Positions 21,560 through 29,454 of a stretch of DNA of 45,944 nt are shown piece after piece. Below the pieces are notes generated by a model. That model worked only from the letters and a program-made list of their open reading frames with translations, made no database searches and was not told the DNA's origin. Positions within the stretch are counted from its first letter, which is position 1. Each line of letters opens with the position of its first letter. Location: contig CAIZPP010000005.1 in the NCBI GenBank assembly GCA_903934875.1, forward strand, positions 1-45,944, read 5' to 3'. Source of the stretch: an uncultured Methylococcaceae bacterium (GTDB taxonomy: Bacteria; Pseudomonadota; Gammaproteobacteria; Methylococcales; Methylococcaceae). The translations under genes and the position numbers were made by a program.

Positions 21560-21862
21560 ATGCGACTGACTCCATATCAAATCCATGCGATTATCCAAAC
21601 CGTATCCCGTTTGACCGGCGGGACAGCGGAAGTTTTTTTGTTTGGTTCACGGCTTGATGATCGGGCGAGGGGAGGTGATATCGACCTGTTGATTCTGACC
21701 AGTACTCAGATGGGCCTAATCGAGCGGGCGCGGATCAAAATGGAATTGGAATCCCTAGTCAGCCTACCGATTGATATTGTATCGCAAGTGCACAACTCGG
21801 CACCTACCCCGTTTCAGCGTATCGCCCGTGCCAATGCCGTCAGACTGGAGCCGCTATTATGA
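21560..21862 (+). CDS. MNT-type minimal nucleotidyltransferase (antitoxin-like)
   Basis: This 100-aa protein has the nucleotidyltransferase active site LFGSRLDDRARGGDIDLLI (GSR..RGGDIDL) near residues 28-46 and a third acidic position in LPIDIVSQ near 71. MNT proteins act as antitoxins of HEPN RNases, in known cases by AMPylating them. The following ORF overlaps by 4 bp (ATGA) and starts like a HEPN partner but is broken, so this is an orphaned antitoxin. It is homologous to the decayed gene at 35943. It begins 15 bp after a repeat element. Confidence 0.85.
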   Translation: MRLTPYQIHAIIQTVSRLTGGTAEVFLFGSRLDDRARGGDIDLLILTSTQMGLIERARIKMELESLVSLPIDIVSQVHNSAPTPFQRIARANAVRLEPLL

Positions 21863-22072
21863 ACAATGCTGCACTTGAAGCGGAACGGGCGTATCTTTCT
21901 GGCCTGCTTGAGGCTATTCAGCGTTGTGTTTATTTTTTAGACGCTTCTGACCGGAAGCATACATGGCCGTTAATGCCAGAAAACTTGGCATACCATAAAA
22001 ATGTCACGCATACACTACACTAAACACACGACTACCGAGTTGAAGATGGCTTTAGTCACCGATGCCGCCAGT
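21859..22072 (+). pseudogene. Truncated HEPN-domain toxin remnant
   Basis: From ATG 21859 (overlapping the MNT stop) the frame reads MNNAALEAERAYLSGLLEAI and continues RCVYFLDASDRKHTWPLMPENLA, a typical N-terminus of MNT-associated HEPN proteins, but stops at TAA 22021-22023 after 54 codons. Directly after it the same frame gives THDYRVEDG, resembling the family's C-terminal RNxxAHDY region. The simplest reading is an internal deletion of the middle (about 60-70 residues) with loss of the RNase site Arg. The usual protein is about 150 aa. Confidence 0.7.
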
Positions 22073-22089: not shown

Positions 22090-22935
22090 GTGAAAATAGC
22101 TGTGACAGGGGCAACCGGTTTTATCGGGCGGCATGTTGTTGCTGAACTGGATCGCCGCTCAGTGTTTCCGGTCCTGATGTGTCGGCCCGCAGCAAAAATT
22201 CCGCTGCCGTTGTCAAATTATGAAATTGTTTCGATTGACCTTGAAAATCCGCCGCCTAATGCATTTGATTTGCTGGGCCAGCCAGATATACTGGTCCATC
22301 TAGCGTGGTCTGGGTTGCCGAATTACAAATCATTGCATCATTTTGAGGAAGAATTGCCAGCCCAGTATCGCTTCCTGAAAGGGCTGATTAAATCCGGTCT
22401 AAAAAACCTAGTCGTCACAGGAACCTGCTTTGAATACGGTATGCAGTCAGGCCCGCTTCACGAAGAGATGGGTGCACGACCGAGCAATCCTTATGGTTTT
22501 GCCAAAGACGCGCTGCGGTGCCAATTAGAATATCTTCAGAAGTTTCAGGCATTTAATCTGATTTGGGCGCGCCTGTTTTATCTTTATGGGGAAGGGCAGG
22601 CAGAGAATTCATTGTTACCGCAGCTTATGCGGGCGGTGGAGCGAGGTGACAAGATGTTCAATATGTCCGGTGGGGAGCAGTTGCGCGATTATCTACCCGC
22701 TGCCGAAGCGGGGAAACATCTTGTTTCCTTGGCAATGACGGTTCAGAATCACGGAATTGTGAATGTTTGTTCGGGAACCCCTATTTCGGTACGCAAACTG
22801 GTTGAAGGCTGGACCAAGGCAGACGGTCGGCTTATAAACCTAAATTTTGGACACTATCCCTATAATGACTATGAACCGATGGCGTTTTGGGGGTGTGCAG
22901 ATAAACTTTACTCAATCATCAAAGAGACTGCATGA
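22090..22935 (+). CDS. NAD-dependent epimerase/dehydratase (extended SDR), putative 4-ketoreductase
   Basis: This 281-aa SDR has a Rossmann motif VTGATGFIGRHVV (residues 5-17), the Thr/Ser site region VVTGTCFEYG (about 109) and the catalytic NPYGFAKDALR (YxxxK about 136). GTG 22090 overlaps the end of an upstream open frame (GTGA), giving VKIAVTGATG. The position after rfbF/rfbG/epimerase/C-methyltransferase suggests it reduces the 4-keto group of the branched sugar, the last step of the pathway; other SDR reactions are possible. A repeat element and a broken toxin gene now separate it from the first four genes. It overlaps the next gene by 4 bp (ATGA). Confidence 0.85.
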   Translation: MKIAVTGATGFIGRHVVAELDRRSVFPVLMCRPAAKIPLPLSNYEIVSIDLENPPPNAFDLLGQPDILVHLAWSGLPNYKSLHHFEEELPAQYRFLKGLIKSGLKNLVVTGTCFEYGMQSGPLHEEMGARPSNPYGFAKDALRCQLEYLQKFQAFNLIWARLFYLYGEGQAENSLLPQLMRAVERGDKMFNMSGGEQLRDYLPAAEAGKHLVSLAMTVQNHGIVNVCSGTPISVRKLVEGWTKADGRLINLNFGHYPYNDYEPMAFWGCADKLYSIIKETA

Positions 22936-23714
22936 GTACGAATCCGATTGAAGTGTTTTCTCAGGAGTGCGGGGAAAGGATCGCATCCTATCCTAGCAGC
23001 GAATTGGCTAGTGCCGCTGCCCTATTCATGGCAGCTAGCACAGTGCCTAAGTACTCCTACAATTTCTCCTGGCTTGGTCGCCCTATCATCCAGTATCCGC
23101 AAGACATCATTGCGATGCAGGAGATCATTTGGTTGGTGCAGCCTGACCTGATAATTGAAGCCGGCATTGCACATGGCGGGTCGCTGATCATGAGCGCATC
23201 CATACTGGCCTTACTTGATATGAGTGATGCCATTGAGTCGGGCGAAAAACTCGATCCTAAACTTTCCCACCGCAAAGTATTGGGCATCGACATAGACATT
23301 CGTGCCCACAACCGCGAGGCTATCGAGGCACACCCTATGGCTTCGCGCATTCAGATGATCCAAGGTTCCAGCATCGAACTGGAAATAATTGAACAGGTAC
23401 GCGCCGTCGCCGCAAACTATAAGCGTGTGCTAGTCTGCCTAGATAGTAACCACACCCACGCCCATGTGCTGGCAGAATTGGAAGCCTATGCGCCGCTCAC
23501 CTCAGAAGGCAGTTATTGTGTGGTGTTCGATACCATCATTGACGACATGCCTGAAGGTACTTACCCCGACCGCCCGTGGGACAAGGGCAATAACCCAAAA
23601 ACTGCCGTGTGGGAGTATCTAAAATCCCACTCCGAGTTTGAGATCGACAAGAGTATACAAAACAAGCTGCTGATTACTGTCGCACCGGATGGGTTTTTGC
23701 GGCGGGTAAGGTAG
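22932..23714 (+). CDS. CmcI/cephalosporin hydroxylase-family (probable sugar O-methyltransferase)
   Basis: This 260-aa protein belongs to the CmcI family, which in glycan clusters (rhamnosyl O-methyltransferases) methylates sugars rather than hydroxylating antibiotics. Landmarks are FSWLGRPIIQYPQDIIAMQE (about 44-63), the SAM-binding LIIEAGIAHGGSLI (about 72), LGIDIDIRAHNR (about 116), VLVCLDSNHTHAHVL (about 165) and the metal-site-like FDTIIDDMP. ATG 22932 overlaps the SDR stop. Together they suggest O-methylation of the deoxysugar-containing unit. The family assignment is strong, the acceptor unknown. Confidence 0.85.
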   Translation: MSTNPIEVFSQECGERIASYPSSELASAAALFMAASTVPKYSYNFSWLGRPIIQYPQDIIAMQEIIWLVQPDLIIEAGIAHGGSLIMSASILALLDMSDAIESGEKLDPKLSHRKVLGIDIDIRAHNREAIEAHPMASRIQMIQGSSIELEIIEQVRAVAANYKRVLVCLDSNHTHAHVLAELEAYAPLTSEGSYCVVFDTIIDDMPEGTYPDRPWDKGNNPKTAVWEYLKSHSEFEIDKSIQNKLLITVAPDGFLRRVR

Positions 23715-23830
23715 ATGATACTGATTTAGCCGCGTAGGTCTGGCAACGTTTTTTTTTGCCCGAGACTTCATCGGTGTTGTCGGGCGAAAACAGGCTCGCT
23801 AGACCTGCAAGACTGTGAGAGGAATCTAAC

Positions 23831-24349
23831 ATGAATACCGAATCACTAAAAGAGGCGATTAAACGGGAACTGCCGGAATTTTTGCGTACGGATCAAGACT
23901 TCCGTTCCTACATTATCGAATTGACACGGCAGGAGTATGCAGGACGGGTAGAAACCCAAGACCGGTTTTATGACCTCCTGGCAGAATTGCGCCGCGACCG
24001 GGAAGGGAGAACCCGTGAATGGGAAGAATTTAAGGACGGGCAGAGCCGCAAGTGGGACGAGCAGAACCGCAGGTGGGACGAGCAGAACCGCAGGTGGGAC
24101 GAGACTCAGGCGGAATTGCGGCGGATTCACGAAGAGATTATGTTGCTGATCTGCGAACTGAAGTCTTCCATCGACAAGGCTGGCATGTACATTTTCGAGC
24201 GCAAGGCGCGGTATTACGAGCAGCGGCATCAGCGTACCGCCAACCGTCTGATCGTCATATCGCCCATGATCGACGCACGGGCGCGCAGGGTGGTGGAGCG
24301 GTTGGGGATTGAAACCTACGGCGATTCGTCCGAAGTTGAGGCAATATGA
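23831..24349 (+). CDS. PD-(D/E)XK-like (DUF3782-type) protein with internal deletion
   Basis: This 172-aa protein has the N-terminus of a family common in methanotrophs and cyanobacteria (LKEAIKRELPEFLRTDQDFR) and a coiled coil with tandem WDEQNRR heptads (21-bp DNA repeats near 24053-24094). It then jumps from RRIHEEIM to LLICELKSSIDKAGMY and the conserved tail YEQRHQRTANRLIVISPM. Family members I know are about 240-260 aa and have 80-90 more residues here, including the acidic part of the nuclease-like core; only the ELK of the ExK motif remains. The frame is kept across the deletion. A good ribosome binding site (GAGAGGA) precedes ATG 23831. Probably inactive. Confidence 0.7.
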   Translation: MNTESLKEAIKRELPEFLRTDQDFRSYIIELTRQEYAGRVETQDRFYDLLAELRRDREGRTREWEEFKDGQSRKWDEQNRRWDEQNRRWDETQAELRRIHEEIMLLICELKSSIDKAGMYIFERKARYYEQRHQRTANRLIVISPMIDARARRVVERLGIETYGDSSEVEAI

Positions 24350-24385
24350 GGTTCAAGGTGCCCACTGCATCAGTTTGGATAAAGC

Positions 24386-26659
24386 ATGCCGCTGAATAAA
24401 CGTTTAGTCTCCAATTGTCTTGTTCATGGCTGGCGGGCGGTTATGAGCTTGGCTTGGATTCCGCTTTATCTACAATTGCTTGGAAACGAAAGTTTTGCTC
24501 TGGTCGGGCTATTTGCCCTTCTGCAAGCATGGTTAATTGTGTTTAATCTAGTGTTACAGCAGTCGATGTCAGGCATGGTCAGTTTAGATAATACACTAGC
24601 TATTCGCAGCCGACTGCTGAAACTTTCATTAAGTATAATGTTCAGCGGGGTAATCGTTGCTCTCGGCATTTGGGCCGCCTCGGGCTGGTTGGCATCGACA
24701 TGGGTAAATACCGAGTGGTTGAATGTGAAATATCTCCCTGTCGAATCGGTGGGTCAGGCATTTACCTTGATGGGCGTGGTCACCGTTTTGCAGTTGATTG
24801 AGAGTCTATATTCTGGCACCCTGGTCGGTTTACAGCGACAGTCCCTGCAAAATGTAATGACGAGCTTGCTGGCTACGCTGCGGGGCTTGGGTGCTGTGGG
24901 TGTGCTAGTCTGGTTCTCGCCTACCGTTAACGCGTTTTTTATTTGGCAAGGCCTGATATCGCTGGTTATAGTCTTATTTTTTGCAGGGCTTGTTTATCAA
25001 TGCCTCCGGTCCACCCACCCGGGAATCTCCCTAGACCGAGCCAGCTTAACAAGCCGAGTCGGTCTCATGTTAGGGTTCCCTGGTTTCATTTGGCGCAAGC
25101 AAGGTACTTATGCCTCTACACTAACCGCTCGCAACCCTTCTCTGAAAAAAAACGTCGCCGCCAATTATCTAGGCCAAGGATGGCGGGCACTAATGAGTAT
25201 GGCGTTCATTCCGCTGTACATCCGTTATCTTGGCATCGAGTCTTATGGTTTGATCGGAATTTTCGCCATTTTGCAAGCGTGGTTAGGGTTGCTCGATATG
25301 GGAATGAGGCCTGCACTGGGTCGGGAGATGGCTCGGTTTACCGGTGGGGCGCACGATGCGCAGACTATTCGCAATCTGCTTCGGAGCATAGAAGTGATTG
25401 CTTTTGCCATTGCAGTGGCGGTTGCGCTGGGAATTTGGGCGGCCTCTGGCTGGCTGGCCTCCAACTGGTTAAATGTTAAAAATCTGCCAGTCGATATTGT
25501 CGTAAAGGCGTTTTCGCTAATGGGCGTGGTCACCGCTTTGCAATTTATCGAGAGTATCTATGCCAGTAGCATTGCTGGCTTGCAGCGTCAGGTGCTGCAA
25601 AACGTGATAACCAGCACTATGGCCACGGCGCGAGGTTTGGGCGCAGTTGGCATATTGGTCTGGGTTTCACCGACCATTGAGGCCTTTTTTATCTGGCAGG
25701 GTTTTATTTCTCTGGTAAACGTCGCTTTGTTTGCAAGCGTGGTTTATCGTACACTCCCGGACGCTCAGTTTGCCCGCTTTTCCATTAACGCTCTTAAGGG
25801 AGTGGGTCGTTTCGCGGGGGGGGCGATGGCAATTACTTTATCAACATTGCTATTGACCCAAACCGATAAGATTTTGCTGTCACGCTTGCTGACTTTGGAA
25901 AACTTTGCCCATTACACCTTAGCAGGTGTGGTTGCCAATGCGTTATATATGCTCGTGGCTCCAATCGGTTCCGCTTTTTATCCGCGCTTTACCGAACTGG
26001 CGACGCGAGGTGACGATCTTGCCTTGCGCAAGGTCTACCACCAAGGAGCCCAGATGGTGACGGTGCTGATGGGTTCCGCTGCAGTGGTATTGATGCTCTT
26101 TGGTGGCAAGGTGTTGCGACTGTGGACTGCTGACCCGGCGTTGGCCCAGCAGGTTTCACCTCTGCTAGCTGTACTTGCGCTAGGCACACTATGCAACGGG
26201 CTGATGTGGATTCCCTATCAGATGCAACTTGCCCACGGCTGGACTAGTCTGACAATTAAGATCAACAGCATTGCTGTTGCTACCTTGGTCCCTTGCATCC
26301 TATGGGCAGTGGCGAAATACGGGGCGATAGGAGCAGCTTGGGTATGGGTGGCGCTGAATACGGGGTACTTGGTGTTTGGCATCTATTTTTTTCACAAAAA
26401 TTTGTTAAGCACCGAAAAATGGCATTGGTATGGTCAGGATGTTGCCAGCCCTTTGTTGGCTGCAACTGCTACGGCGGGATTATGCCGCTGGGTTATGCCG
26501 GACAATTTAGGAAAGTTCGGTGAGTTCACCGTGTTGTTGATGAGTTCTGGATGTGTGCTGATTTCGGCATCCTTGGGTGCCCCCTTAATTCGTCATCAGC
26601 TAATCCGGTTTGTGTCGAGCAGGTTAAAACTAGTGACGTATGGGTATAAAGTTGAGTAA
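24386..26659 (+). CDS. Oversized Wzx/MOP-family flippase with duplicated N-terminal half
   Basis: This 757-aa inner-membrane protein is far longer than normal Wzx flippases (400-500 aa). Residues about 252-757 form a complete polysaccharide-type flippase (VAANYLGQGWRALMSMAFIP ... GRFAGGAMAITL ... DKILLSRLLTL ... FYPRFTEL). Residues about 5-215 are a second, diverged copy of its first half: WRAVMSLAWIPLYL versus WRALMSMAFIPLYI, ALGIWAASGWLAS in both, GLGAVGVLVWFSPT versus GLGAVGILVWVSPT. The RPALGREMARFTGGA block of copy 2 is degraded in copy 1 (QQSMSGMVSLDNT). A linker (about 215-251) joins them. It presumably flips lipid-linked repeat units; the extra roughly six helices are unexplained. A G8 run (25816-25823) lies in copy 2. 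Confidence 0.9.
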   Translation: MPLNKRLVSNCLVHGWRAVMSLAWIPLYLQLLGNESFALVGLFALLQAWLIVFNLVLQQSMSGMVSLDNTLAIRSRLLKLSLSIMFSGVIVALGIWAASGWLASTWVNTEWLNVKYLPVESVGQAFTLMGVVTVLQLIESLYSGTLVGLQRQSLQNVMTSLLATLRGLGAVGVLVWFSPTVNAFFIWQGLISLVIVLFFAGLVYQCLRSTHPGISLDRASLTSRVGLMLGFPGFIWRKQGTYASTLTARNPSLKKNVAANYLGQGWRALMSMAFIPLYIRYLGIESYGLIGIFAILQAWLGLLDMGMRPALGREMARFTGGAHDAQTIRNLLRSIEVIAFAIAVAVALGIWAASGWLASNWLNVKNLPVDIVVKAFSLMGVVTALQFIESIYASSIAGLQRQVLQNVITSTMATARGLGAVGILVWVSPTIEAFFIWQGFISLVNVALFASVVYRTLPDAQFARFSINALKGVGRFAGGAMAITLSTLLLTQTDKILLSRLLTLENFAHYTLAGVVANALYMLVAPIGSAFYPRFTELATRGDDLALRKVYHQGAQMVTVLMGSAAVVLMLFGGKVLRLWTADPALAQQVSPLLAVLALGTLCNGLMWIPYQMQLAHGWTSLTIKINSIAVATLVPCILWAVAKYGAIGAAWVWVALNTGYLVFGIYFFHKNLLSTEKWHWYGQDVASPLLAATATAGLCRWVMPDNLGKFGEFTVLLMSSGCVLISASLGAPLIRHQLIRFVSSRLKLVTYGYKVE

Positions 26660-26735
26660 AGTCAGGTATTGCGGGGCATCGAATATCTTGATTTACTAAT
26701 AGATTTTTATGTTAAAAAACTTTGGGGTTGCATGA

Positions 26736-27611
26736 ATGAAAAATGAACAAATAATTGAATTGTTAGTGGCTATACTCGGAAAACAAACAAGCTATCGATT
26801 AGGTCGTGCCTTGTATCAGCAAGCTCGTGGTGATATTCAAAATAACATTGCTACAAATGGAGAAAGAATGATCCAGCGATGTGTTATAAATGCATGGAGA
26901 AAAAAGGTAATTAAGGATAGTCAGTTAGTTGTGTTTGATGTAGGAGCTAATATAGGGGAATGGTCATATCAATTATTAGATGACTTATTAAAGTCAAATG
27001 AATTGCAATTTTTGGATATCTATTTATTTGAACCAGTTCCAAGCACTGCTGAAAAATTAATACAGAGGTTGAATAAGTTTGGTGATTTGTTGCGCTTCGA
27101 GCAATTAGTTCTTTCATCAACAGACGGTATTGATCAGTTCTACATTAATTGCAATAATGAGAATGCGGGAACCAATTCATTATATCAACAAGGAATTGAT
27201 AGCTATACTATAAATGTGCTAAAAAATACGGCCAGTACATTTTGTGCAGCGAATAAAATTAACAAAATACACTTATTCAAATGCGACACTGAAGGGCACG
27301 ATATGGAAGTCATTAGAGGAGCCATACCGTTAATCGCTGAAGAAAAAATTGATGTTTTTCAATTTGAGTATAACTATCGCTGGATATATTCAAAAAATTT
27401 TCTAAGGGATGTTTTTTCTATCATAGAAAAACTTCCTTATAAAATTGCTAAAATACAGAGCGAATATATAATTCTATTACCAGAATGGCACTTTGAGCTT
27501 GACAAGTTCTTTGAAGGAAATTATTTACTGGTTCATAAGGATTCAGTAAGATGGTTTCCAGCCAAAACAGCTGCATTTGATCGGTATAACACACAATGCC
27601 TAAATGTGTAA
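26736..27611 (+). CDS. FkbM-family methyltransferase
   Basis: This 291-aa class I SAM methyltransferase has the FkbM pattern: VVFDVGANIGEWSYQLL (motif I, about 67), IYLFEPVPSTAEKL (about 97), and LFKCDTEGHDMEVIRGA (about 188). Such enzymes O-methylate sugars in glycan clusters. The gene opens an AT-rich block whose codon use differs visibly from the GC-richer genes around it, pointing to separate acquisition. The acceptor is unknown. Confidence 0.85.
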   Translation: MKNEQIIELLVAILGKQTSYRLGRALYQQARGDIQNNIATNGERMIQRCVINAWRKKVIKDSQLVVFDVGANIGEWSYQLLDDLLKSNELQFLDIYLFEPVPSTAEKLIQRLNKFGDLLRFEQLVLSSTDGIDQFYINCNNENAGTNSLYQQGIDSYTINVLKNTASTFCAANKINKIHLFKCDTEGHDMEVIRGAIPLIAEEKIDVFQFEYNYRWIYSKNFLRDVFSIIEKLPYKIAKIQSEYIILLPEWHFELDKFFEGNYLLVHKDSVRWFPAKTAAFDRYNTQCLNV

Positions 27612-27682
27612 TAAGAACTCAATTCGCAAGTTATTCAGTTTGCTGGGTGAATATTAATCAAAAATGATGCATGGGGATTAGT

Positions 27683-28630
27683 ATGAATAGCATAAGCCAG
27701 TCAGATAATTCGGCAAAAATACCGAAAGTTAGCATAGGAATGCCGGTATACAATGGTGAAAGATATCTTCATAATGTGTTGCAATGCTTGTTAGCGCAGA
27801 CTTATACTAATTTTGAGTTGATTATTTCAGATAATTTTTCAACAGATTCTACAAAAGCAATATGCAAGGAATTTTGTAATCGCGATGCTAGGATTTTATA
27901 TCATTGCCAGTCTGAAAATATAGGTGCAGCAAATAACTTTTTATTCGTGCTTAATCAGGCGCGGGGTGAATTTTTTATGTGGGCATCTTGTGATGACCAC
28001 TGGGATAATAATTGGCTAGAAGTTTTGTTGAGTAAGATGGATATAGGGACAGTAATATCATTTGGTCGTGTAATAGAGGTTTGGCCAGATAAATCTGTTA
28101 ATAAAGTATATCCAGTGATGGGCTTTTCAGCAAGTAAGCCAATTAGAATAGCAAAGCTACTGCTGATAGATGCGTCTAACAAAGCTATGCTAATCCATGG
28201 ATTATTTAGAAGAGCTTATTTTAATACTGAAAATGGTAGAATAGCTTTAAAATATTTTGTCTCAAAAGCTATGTATATTGAATTGTATTTTGTCTATAAA
28301 ATCGCACAGGATGGTAATATTGCGACTACTGACTCAACATGTTTTTATAAATCGTTAGGGGGTACAAGTTCACCTCAATTTCAGCATAAAACATCAATGA
28401 CACATAGACCAGCTAGTTTTTCAACGTTAGGGGTTTCGAAGCTGCTAAAAAAATCTTTTGATATTTTAAATCCTGTAAATTTGATAAAATATCATATACT
28501 TTATATTTTTGTTCCTAGTTCATGGTATATAAAACTATTAGTACTGGTATTTTTGCCTGTTGTATTGCTGAAACATTATCTCTCTCTTGGATTGTATTTG
28601 GTATCCCGTATAACAAATAAAGTGAAATAA
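27683..28630 (+). CDS. Family 2 glycosyltransferase
   Basis: This GT-A glycosyltransferase has VSIGMPVYNGERYLHNVLQC at its start, FELIISDNFSTDST (about 45) and FMWASCDDHWDNNW (acidic metal-site region, about 95). GGGGA at 27672-27676 favours ATG 27683 (315 aa) over ATG 27671. The C-terminus has hydrophobic segments that may tether it to the membrane. AT-rich. Donor and acceptor unknown. Confidence 0.85.
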   Translation: MNSISQSDNSAKIPKVSIGMPVYNGERYLHNVLQCLLAQTYTNFELIISDNFSTDSTKAICKEFCNRDARILYHCQSENIGAANNFLFVLNQARGEFFMWASCDDHWDNNWLEVLLSKMDIGTVISFGRVIEVWPDKSVNKVYPVMGFSASKPIRIAKLLLIDASNKAMLIHGLFRRAYFNTENGRIALKYFVSKAMYIELYFVYKIAQDGNIATTDSTCFYKSLGGTSSPQFQHKTSMTHRPASFSTLGVSKLLKKSFDILNPVNLIKYHILYIFVPSSWYIKLLVLVFLPVVLLKHYLSLGLYLVSRITNKVK

Positions 28631-28638
28631 GTTATTTT

Positions 28639-29454
28639 ATGAAAAATAAATTTACAATTGTAGTTAGTTCATCTGACGCATATGAAGACTGTTGGAATCC
28701 TTTTTTTACACTGTTCAACAAGTTCTGGCCTAATTGTGAAATTCCAATAATGTTGGTTTCGAATACGAAGGTTTTCGAATTTGAAAATCTAAATATAACC
28801 TGTCCAATAGCTGGAATGGCTAGCAGAAACAATAAGTGGGGTGAGTCGTTTCTAAAGACATTACAGGCAGTCGATACTGATATCATTTTATTGCTAATGA
28901 TTGATTATTTTATAAAATCCCCAGTACAAATCAATGTGCTTAACGAGCTAGTTGATTTGATGTACAGAGATAATATAACTCACATAGTGCTTTTATCAGA
29001 AGTGCCGGGTTCAAAATGCAAAACTAAATATCCTATGCTTCTTGAACGAGGACAACAGGTTCCATATAGGTTTACTTTGCAAGCAGGACTGTGGAGAAAA
29101 GATCGACTAAATGATTATATTAGAGAATATGAAGATCCTTGGCTAGGAGAAACTTGGGGAACTAAGCGGGCATGGCATATTAAAGAAAGTTTTTATTGTA
29201 TAGATAAAGCGTTTGAGCAGGCAGAGGGTAAAATTATTAACTATCATCATTTAGGTGGGATGAGGCAAGGCAAATGGCGTAAAGAAGAGGTTGTGGATTT
29301 ATTCAAGCAAAATGGGGTTGAAGTTGATTTCTTAATTAGAGGTTTTCATGACGATTCGCAAATTAAAACTTTACCTGAACGGCTGAAGGCAAGACTATAT
29401 AGGTTTCCATCTGAGGCTATATCTTGGCTAGAGTTATATTTTATGACATATTAA
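28639..29454 (+). CDS. Putative glycosyltransferase-like protein of unknown family
   Basis: This 271-aa soluble protein begins NKFTIVVSSSDAYEDCW and has ILLLMIDYFIKSPVQINVL (about 84-102), reminiscent of the acidic donor-site region of GT-A enzymes. WGESFLKTLQAV and YHHLGGMRQGKWRKEE are further possible conserved blocks. I do not recognise a firm family. Its place between a GT2 and a polymerase, 8 bp after the GT2 gene, supports a glycan-assembly role. AT-rich like its neighbours. Confidence 0.5.
   Translation: MKNKFTIVVSSSDAYEDCWNPFFTLFNKFWPNCEIPIMLVSNTKVFEFENLNITCPIAGMASRNNKWGESFLKTLQAVDTDIILLLMIDYFIKSPVQINVLNELVDLMYRDNITHIVLLSEVPGSKCKTKYPMLLERGQQVPYRFTLQAGLWRKDRLNDYIREYEDPWLGETWGTKRAWHIKESFYCIDKAFEQAEGKIINYHHLGGMRQGKWRKEEVVDLFKQNGVEVDFLIRGFHDDSQIKTLPERLKARLYRFPSEAISWLELYFMTY

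What the first reader, a model, noticed from the sequence alone, without database searches (positions are those of the whole stretch)
24386..26659. A 757-residue flippase carrying a duplicated, diverged N-terminal half
The reading frame encodes one and a half flippases: residues about 5-215 repeat residues about 255-475 (ALGIWAASGWLAS in both; GLGAVGVLVWFSPT versus GLGAVGILVWVSPT). Wzx/MOP proteins have two six-helix lobes and 12-14 helices; this one would have roughly 18-20. The conserved RPALGREMARF block is degraded in the first copy, so the extra lobe may be regulatory, may act as a dominant partner, or may be a decaying duplicate fused by recombination. A tandem-gene fusion frozen in frame is unusual for this superfamily.
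Basis: partly seen in the sequence, partly recalled or inferred. Interest (0 to 1): 0.75.

Follow-up and report, generated by a model that had tools for sequence, protein, structure and literature searches.

The report
Flippase fused to decaying half-copy
A bacterial sugar-lipid transporter gene appears to be fused, in frame, to the worn front half of a second copy of itself, and the seam carries what looks like the remains of a small palindromic DNA repeat scattered through this genus.

Summary
ORF 24386-26659 (757 aa) carries a diverged N-lobe copy (A, residues ~3-210) in front of a complete, normal flippase (B, from ~251). The copies share ~61% of DNA, so one copy is not an assembly repeat of the other. 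No relative examined has the 1.5x layout. B keeps 69 of 70 N-lobe columns conserved in its 22 closest relatives; A keeps 39 and has lost the TM2/TM2-3 block. A groups with B and its near relatives on a branch about 4-9 times longer; its finer place is weak. B has Pro where 9 of 14 displayed relatives have Met. The linker matches, at 25 of 30 arm positions, a 33-nt palindrome found exactly in 6 of 7 genomes of the genus and 0 of 34 other relatives; intact copies lie in frame in genes, most clearly purL. Best reading: B is the working flippase, A a relaxed passenger lobe whose frame is kept as B's leader. No structure model was obtained; expression is untested.

The parts
24386..26659 (+). 757-codon open reading frame: half flippase + linker + complete flippase
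24386..25014 (+). copy A: diverged N-lobe (TM1-6) of the flippase family, residues ~1-210; residues 1-250 alone match no Pfam family at E 0.001
24536..24655 (+). A residues 51-90: lost TM2 end / TM2-3 loop / TM3 start block (RPALGREMARF region), 4 of 40 identical to B, with a 5-residue gap
   Evidence: no frameshift found (21); no inversion or copied source found (26, 27)
25015..25135 (+). linker of ~40 codons between A and B, open in frame
25033..25065 (+). probable decayed copy of the genus-specific 33-nt palindrome (25 of 30 arm positions)
25067..25069 (+). in-frame ATG (residue 228), the only one in the linker; possible separate start for B with a 23-residue extension
   Evidence: sequence
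25136..26656 (+). copy B: complete flippase; Pro251 stands where 9 of 14 displayed relatives have Met
   Evidence: PF01943 56.7 bits against a cut-off of 28.2
22932..23714 (+). RMNT_CmcI methyltransferase gene; in 19 of 59 places compared its match ends within ~55 nt of the flippase match; in G034, G005 and G036 other DNA lies between
23831..24349 (+). PDDEXK_10 gene between the CmcI gene and copy A; no tblastn match (E 1e-8) in any locus compared

Best explanation
Copy B is the working lipid-linked-sugar flippase of this surface-polysaccharide cluster. Copy A is the N-lobe remnant of a second, related flippase gene (a tandem duplicate, or an allele brought in by recombination) whose C-lobe is gone. 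An in-frame deletion or join put A's TM6-7 loop next to codon 2 of B and removed B's start codon (inferred). Since then A has evolved under relaxed constraint and lost the TM2 block, while its reading frame stayed open because it serves as B's leader (inferred). A small palindromic repeat also entered the linker and decayed there (the match is shown; descent and order of events are inferred). Six helices in A would leave B's N-terminus on the cytoplasmic side, so the extra lobe is tolerated (inference).
For: B: 70-73% identity to normal flippases in G005, G034 and G192; 69 of 70 conserved N-lobe columns and 58 of 59 C-lobe columns kept; Pfam cut-offs passed. A: 39 of 70 columns kept, where the lowest of 22 relatives, each left out in turn, keeps 86% of 74; against all 55 relatives A keeps 18 of 33, B 33 of 33, lowest relative 69% of 35. 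Loss is concentrated in the block. Branch 1.29 against 0.15 for B, or 0.67 against 0.17 without the block, both in a 12-row group supported 97/94 and 97/93. No stop in A and no frameshift found; in a neutral simulation with 140-200 substitutions, 25 to 7 of 1000 runs stayed stop-free. Remnants near another flippase in L011 (71 codons) and L139 (frameshifted N-lobe about 1.4 kb upstream). The TM2 kink is reported as important in a capsule flippase (PMC8561386, passages seen).
Against: Much of A is still well conserved (residues 151-190: 30 of 40 identical to B) and third codon positions differ most, so A was, or partly is, under protein-level selection. The tree flags A's long branch as unsure and places it weakly within the 12-row group. 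No expression data. B could start at ATG 25067 without A. The neutral simulation treats all counted change as neutral, starts from B and ignores indels.
Confidence: 0.6

Rival explanations
1. Two products: B is translated on its own from the in-frame ATG at 25067 and A is a dead or separate fragment; the continuous frame is accidental.
For: In-frame ATG at 25067. A 41-codon stretch of this composition would be open by chance with probability about 0.16.
Against: No clear ribosome-binding site before 25067 by eye (not scored; the one before 24386 is weak too). A itself is stop-free over ~210 codons despite heavy change, which this reading leaves to chance or to recent loss.
Confidence: 0.2
2. 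The extra lobe is functional: an accessory six-helix bundle that packs against B and changes its gating, partner choice or amount.
For: Open frame; A residues 151-190 well conserved; changes still biased to third positions.
Against: No relative examined has it; a highly conserved block of the family is the one lost; long branch even without that block.
Confidence: 0.13
3. Assembly artefact: two flippase genes wrongly joined in a draft of 344 contigs.
For: Draft genome, no reads, and the layout seen in one genome only.
Against: Copies ~61% identical with no repeat over 15 nt in register reported; one place in the genome at E 0.001; the 131-nt junction matches only itself apart from three weak hits, two of them the palindrome.
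Confidence: 0.06

Closest known systems
Wzx-type flippases of the MOP superfamily (Pfam PF01943 Polysacc_synt)
   Same: B is a full-length member by sequence, lying among surface-sugar genes
   Different: An extra N-lobe copy is fused in front; none of the relatives examined has it
MurJ (14 helices: N-lobe, C-lobe, two extra C-terminal helices; PMC6465408, passages seen)
   Same: Two-lobe plan with TM1-6 and TM7-12
   Different: Here the extra helices are a repeat of the N-lobe at the N-terminus; sequence relation to MurJ not tested
Rickettsia palindromic elements (RPE) and other intragenic REPs (PMC3733652, passages seen)
   Same: Short dispersed palindrome lying in frame within protein-coding genes
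   Different: Own sequence of 33 nt, seen here in one unnamed genus; in the flippase it is a decayed match inside a fusion linker. No RPE sequence was compared

Membership tests
MOP / Polysacc_synt flippase (copy B) | Passes the curated PF01943 cut-off | tested here: met
   56.7 bits, cut-off 28.2
MOP / Polysacc_synt flippase (copy B) | Both lobes with the conserved columns of the close family | tested here: met
   69 of 70 N-lobe and 58 of 59 C-lobe columns
MOP / Polysacc_synt flippase (copy B) | Moves lipid-linked sugar | not testable with these tools
   needs complementation or a transport assay
MOP / Polysacc_synt flippase (copy A alone) | Passes the Pfam cut-off | tested here: not met
   0 families for residues 1-250 at E 0.001, though homology to B is clear
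MOP / Polysacc_synt flippase (copy A alone) | Two lobes | tested here: not met
   homology ends after TM6; continuation into TM7 not supported
MOP / Polysacc_synt flippase (copy A alone) | Conserved TM2/TM2-3 block | tested here: not met
   4 of 40 identical to B
RPE-like intragenic palindrome (element family) | Dispersed short palindrome | tested here: met
   exact pattern in 6 of 7 genus genomes, 5-32 copies each, and 0 of 34 other relatives
RPE-like intragenic palindrome (element family) | In-frame insertion within intact genes | tested here: met
   11 of 30 copies examined lie in frames of 500 aa or more, 19 do not; clear insertion in PurL, not clear in the AcrB-like frame; no enrichment test was made
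RPE-like intragenic palindrome (element family) | The stretch in the window is a copy | tested here: met
   25 of 30 arm positions; next best in window 18; 0 of 300 simulated windows reach 25, their maximum 21. Left arm decayed, so descent is inferred
Rickettsia RPE family proper | Sequence relationship to RPE families | not tested
   no RPE sequence was compared

The most novel reading that the evidence does not exclude
The fused N-lobe is a domesticated, transport-dead half-flippase kept as a cis-acting partner of B, making a three-lobe (6+12-14 helix) flippase, with its hinge supplied in part by an in-frame palindromic repeat; more widely, this genus uses a 33-nt palindrome as a source of new in-frame protein linkers.
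Probability: 0.12. Interest if true: 0.7.

Novelty: new variant of a known kind. Interest (0 to 1): 0.42.

Why it matters
MOP flippases are built of two related lobes (PMC6465408, passages seen). If the fusion is made, a natural three-lobe version would show that a whole extra lobe can be carried in front of a full flippase, and would let one test what a lobe without its TM2 block still does. The palindrome found at the seam belongs to a genus-specific family whose copies also lie in frame in purL, an NRPS gene, helicase and pump genes, which would be another case of palindromes becoming protein sequence.

Tried and rejected
1. Compensated frameshifts as the cause of the lost block: a frameshift-aware profile alignment found none at three penalties. 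2. Local inversion, or copying of the block from elsewhere: reverse complement no better than shuffles; own-genome DNA search gave only a 21-nt match at E 0.76. 3. A continuing past the palindrome into TM7: 174 of 2000 protein shuffles as good; DNA comparisons with seven sequences had 259, 219, 332, 345, 63, 431 and 305 of 500 shuffles as good; not supported. 4. A as a member of another subfamily: its best identity is with B (56%; next 52%, G192), and among the 24 relatives printed the block matches at most 8 of 40. 5. Other 1.5x flippases: six relatives with reported open frames over 700 aa (G463, G653, G730, G758, G803, G1010) proved to have flippase frames of 501-515 aa beside other genes; the next largest (580, 573, 556 and 552 aa: G1002, G1025, G482, G659) were not looked into. 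6. Phage or plasmid origin: plasmids 7 records, best 32% identity; phages 1 record, 21%; viral contigs none. 7. RNA family in 22900-27700: none. 9. Palindrome in plasmids: no match. 10. Whether the palindrome is in print: one search for a 14-nt arm in the held library gave 0 papers, which says little. Fusion or duplication of flippases in print was searched (listings seen only); I noticed no such case in the rows listed. 11. Structure prediction: no job was accepted (12 calls).

Full report
What is there. ORF 24386-26659 is open for 757 codons. Residues 3-227 align with 254-474 (score 548, best of 200 shuffles 79); about 54% identical in protein and 61% in DNA over 216 codons. Pfam finds Polysacc_synt and MatE only from residue 253 on; the first 250 residues alone match nothing at E 0.001. 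So the frame is a normal flippase (B, from residue 251) with the N-lobe of another copy (A) and a ~40-codon linker in front.

Is it private? In the 48 loci L002-L049 the stop-to-stop stretch holding the flippase is 450-548 aa (L035 is cut by a contig end). Flippase relatives were matched in 9 of 61 genomes, 11 of 369 of the class (E<=1e-60), 28 of 301 of the order and 27 of 398 of the phylum (E<=1e-30). The own genome is counted in each, some genomes are shared between searches, and only the best 2-4 candidates per genome were scored. Six had reported open frames over 700 aa; when fetched, each proved to be a 501-515 aa flippase frame next to other genes. The next largest (552-580 aa, four genomes) were not examined. 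Of 7 genomes of the genus only the own one and G005 carry the family. No second 1.5x case was found.

Which copy works? Over 70 N-lobe columns conserved in at least 90% of the 22 closest relatives, B keeps 69 and A 39; the lowest relative, left out in turn, keeps 86% of 74. Against all 55 relatives A keeps 18 of 33, B 33 of 33, and the lowest relative 69% of 35. In A the loss is concentrated in residues 51-90 (4 of 40 identical to B), where close relatives keep 30-33 of 40 with B; residues 91-105 match 13 of 13 and 151-190 match 30 of 40. By position the block covers the end of TM2 and the TM2-3 loop. Work on a capsule flippase points to the TM2 kink (PMC8561386, passages seen), and in MurJ Glu57 of the G/A-E-G-A motif forms a gate between the lobes (PMC6465408, passages seen). 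Mapping those residues onto this family is my inference and was not tested.

Origin of A. On a tree of 32 N-lobes A falls in a 12-row group with B (support 97/94; 97/93 without the block), nearest by path to G005 (same genus), B, G192 and G034. Its branch is 1.29 against 0.15 for B; without the lost block 0.67 against 0.17. The finer place is weak (A with G005 96/79; unresolved without the block), and the program flags the long branch. I read A as a fast-evolving duplicate or related allele. Synteny: in 19 of the 59 places compared (many are distant or short) the match to the CmcI-type methyltransferase ends within about 55 nt of the flippase match, but in three genomes of the same family (G034, G005, G036) other DNA lies between. 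Here a PDDEXK_10 gene and A intervene. G+C is 49-55% from 19860 to the end of B and falls to 33-35% in the next three genes, so a cluster boundary probably lies just right of B. Remnants near another flippase occur elsewhere: 71 codons in L011 and a frameshifted N-lobe about 1.4 kb upstream of a flippase that runs off the contig in L139. Those are separate; here the remnant is fused.

The seam. The column where 9 of 14 displayed relatives have Met (2 Val, 1 Leu, 2 other; their true starts were not determined) holds Pro251, codon CCT. B therefore seems to lack the usual start; the only in-frame ATG in the linker is at 25067. A's frame has no stop, and the frameshift-aware alignment found no shift. 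If A had changed neutrally by 140-200 substitutions, 25 to 7 of 1000 simulated copies would be stop-free; the two main size changes of A against B, minus 5 and plus 5 residues, are whole codons. I read this as selection on the frame, probably because it leads into B; it is an inference.

The palindrome. The linker folds better than its shuffles (single-strand DNA, z -3.77, 0 of 200 as good) because of an inverted repeat at 25033-25065. Of three weak own-genome hits to the linker, two are palindromes of the form AGACCGACTCGGTT-N-AACCGAGTCGGTCT and the third is unrelated to it. That pattern occurs in 6 of 7 genomes of the genus (9, 11, 8, 9, 0, 5 and 32 copies for G000-G006) and in 0 of 34 other relatives; the pattern read backwards gave 0 everywhere. 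The window's stretch matches 25 of 30 arm positions at the same 33-nt length; the next best place in the window has 18, and 0 of 300 simulated windows reach 25 (maximum 21). Of 30 copies examined (all 9 exact copies of G000 and 21 of the 32 of G006), 11 lie inside frames of 500 aa or more, 5 of 9 and 6 of 21; 19 do not. No test of enrichment was made. Pfam names for these ten frames include PurL, an AcrB-like pump, an NRPS condensation-adenylation junction, Lhr-type helicase (two), MMPL, NACHT-FGE proteins (two), an FGE-sulfatase protein and a DNA methylase. In PurL the element's residues fall in a 14-residue insertion against the solved enzyme, in an otherwise nearly continuous alignment (1131 bits). 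In the AcrB-like frame the alignment runs through the site with no gap there, so that case is not clear. In-frame insertion in genes is what is described for Rickettsia palindromic elements (PMC3733652, passages seen). The flippase linker would be one more such case, decayed.

Mechanism, with status. Shown: two copies, one frame, loss of the block in A, Pro at B's usual start, palindrome-like linker. Inferred: a deletion joined A's TM6-7 loop to codon 2 of B; B flips the lipid-linked repeat unit as other Wzx proteins do; A sits as an extra six-helix bundle. The even helix count, and 10 K/R between residues 204 and 288 (this stretch includes B's TM1, which the scan missed), suggest a cytoplasmic linker that leaves B's topology normal. 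Not shown: that the fusion protein is made, its structure, or any effect of A. The structure machine was full at all 12 requests.

Verdict. A real, apparently private gene fusion made of a decaying half-copy and a normal flippase. Modest interest by itself; the palindrome family found at the seam is the more general lead.

Noticed in passing
G000 (9 copies, e.g. L097:1501-1533), G001-G003, G005, G006; window 25033-25065 (decayed): A 33-nt palindrome dispersed in one genus: 74 exact copies in six genomes, 71 of them exactly 33 nt; 11 of 30 examined lie in long frames, among them purL, NRPS, Lhr-type helicase, MMPL and NACHT-FGE genes.
   Followed up: partly
L102:1501-1533 and 2292-2324: One NACHT-FGE gene in G006 carries two palindrome copies, one at what looks like the same site as in L097.
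   Followed up: no
L120, L121 (IMG/VR contig IMGVR_UViG_3300045970_000708): The same palindrome occurs in two stretches of one contig listed as viral.
   Followed up: no
window 26736-29454: G+C drops from about 51% to 33-35% immediately after the flippase, over FkbM, GT2 and one more gene: a likely recombination boundary.
   Followed up: no
window 26736-27611 against L050:8972-9829: The FkbM methyltransferase lies after the flippase here but before it in G034, at 66% identity: local reshuffling of the cluster.
   Followed up: no
window 23831-24349: PDDEXK_10 gene with 21-nt internal repeats between the CmcI gene and the flippase; partial paralogues on contigs 13 and 14.
   Followed up: partly
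window 21560-22023: Two small overlapping frames that look like a nucleotidyltransferase (MNT) and a shortened HEPN-type partner (naming from memory, not tested).
   Followed up: no
L011:8289-8501: A 71-codon flippase fragment about 1.8 kb downstream of a whole flippase, in a stretch that I read by eye as a broken FkbM-like methyltransferase (not tested).
   Followed up: partly
L139:1032-1721: A frameshifted N-lobe flippase remnant about 1.4 kb upstream of a second flippase that runs to the contig end.
   Followed up: partly
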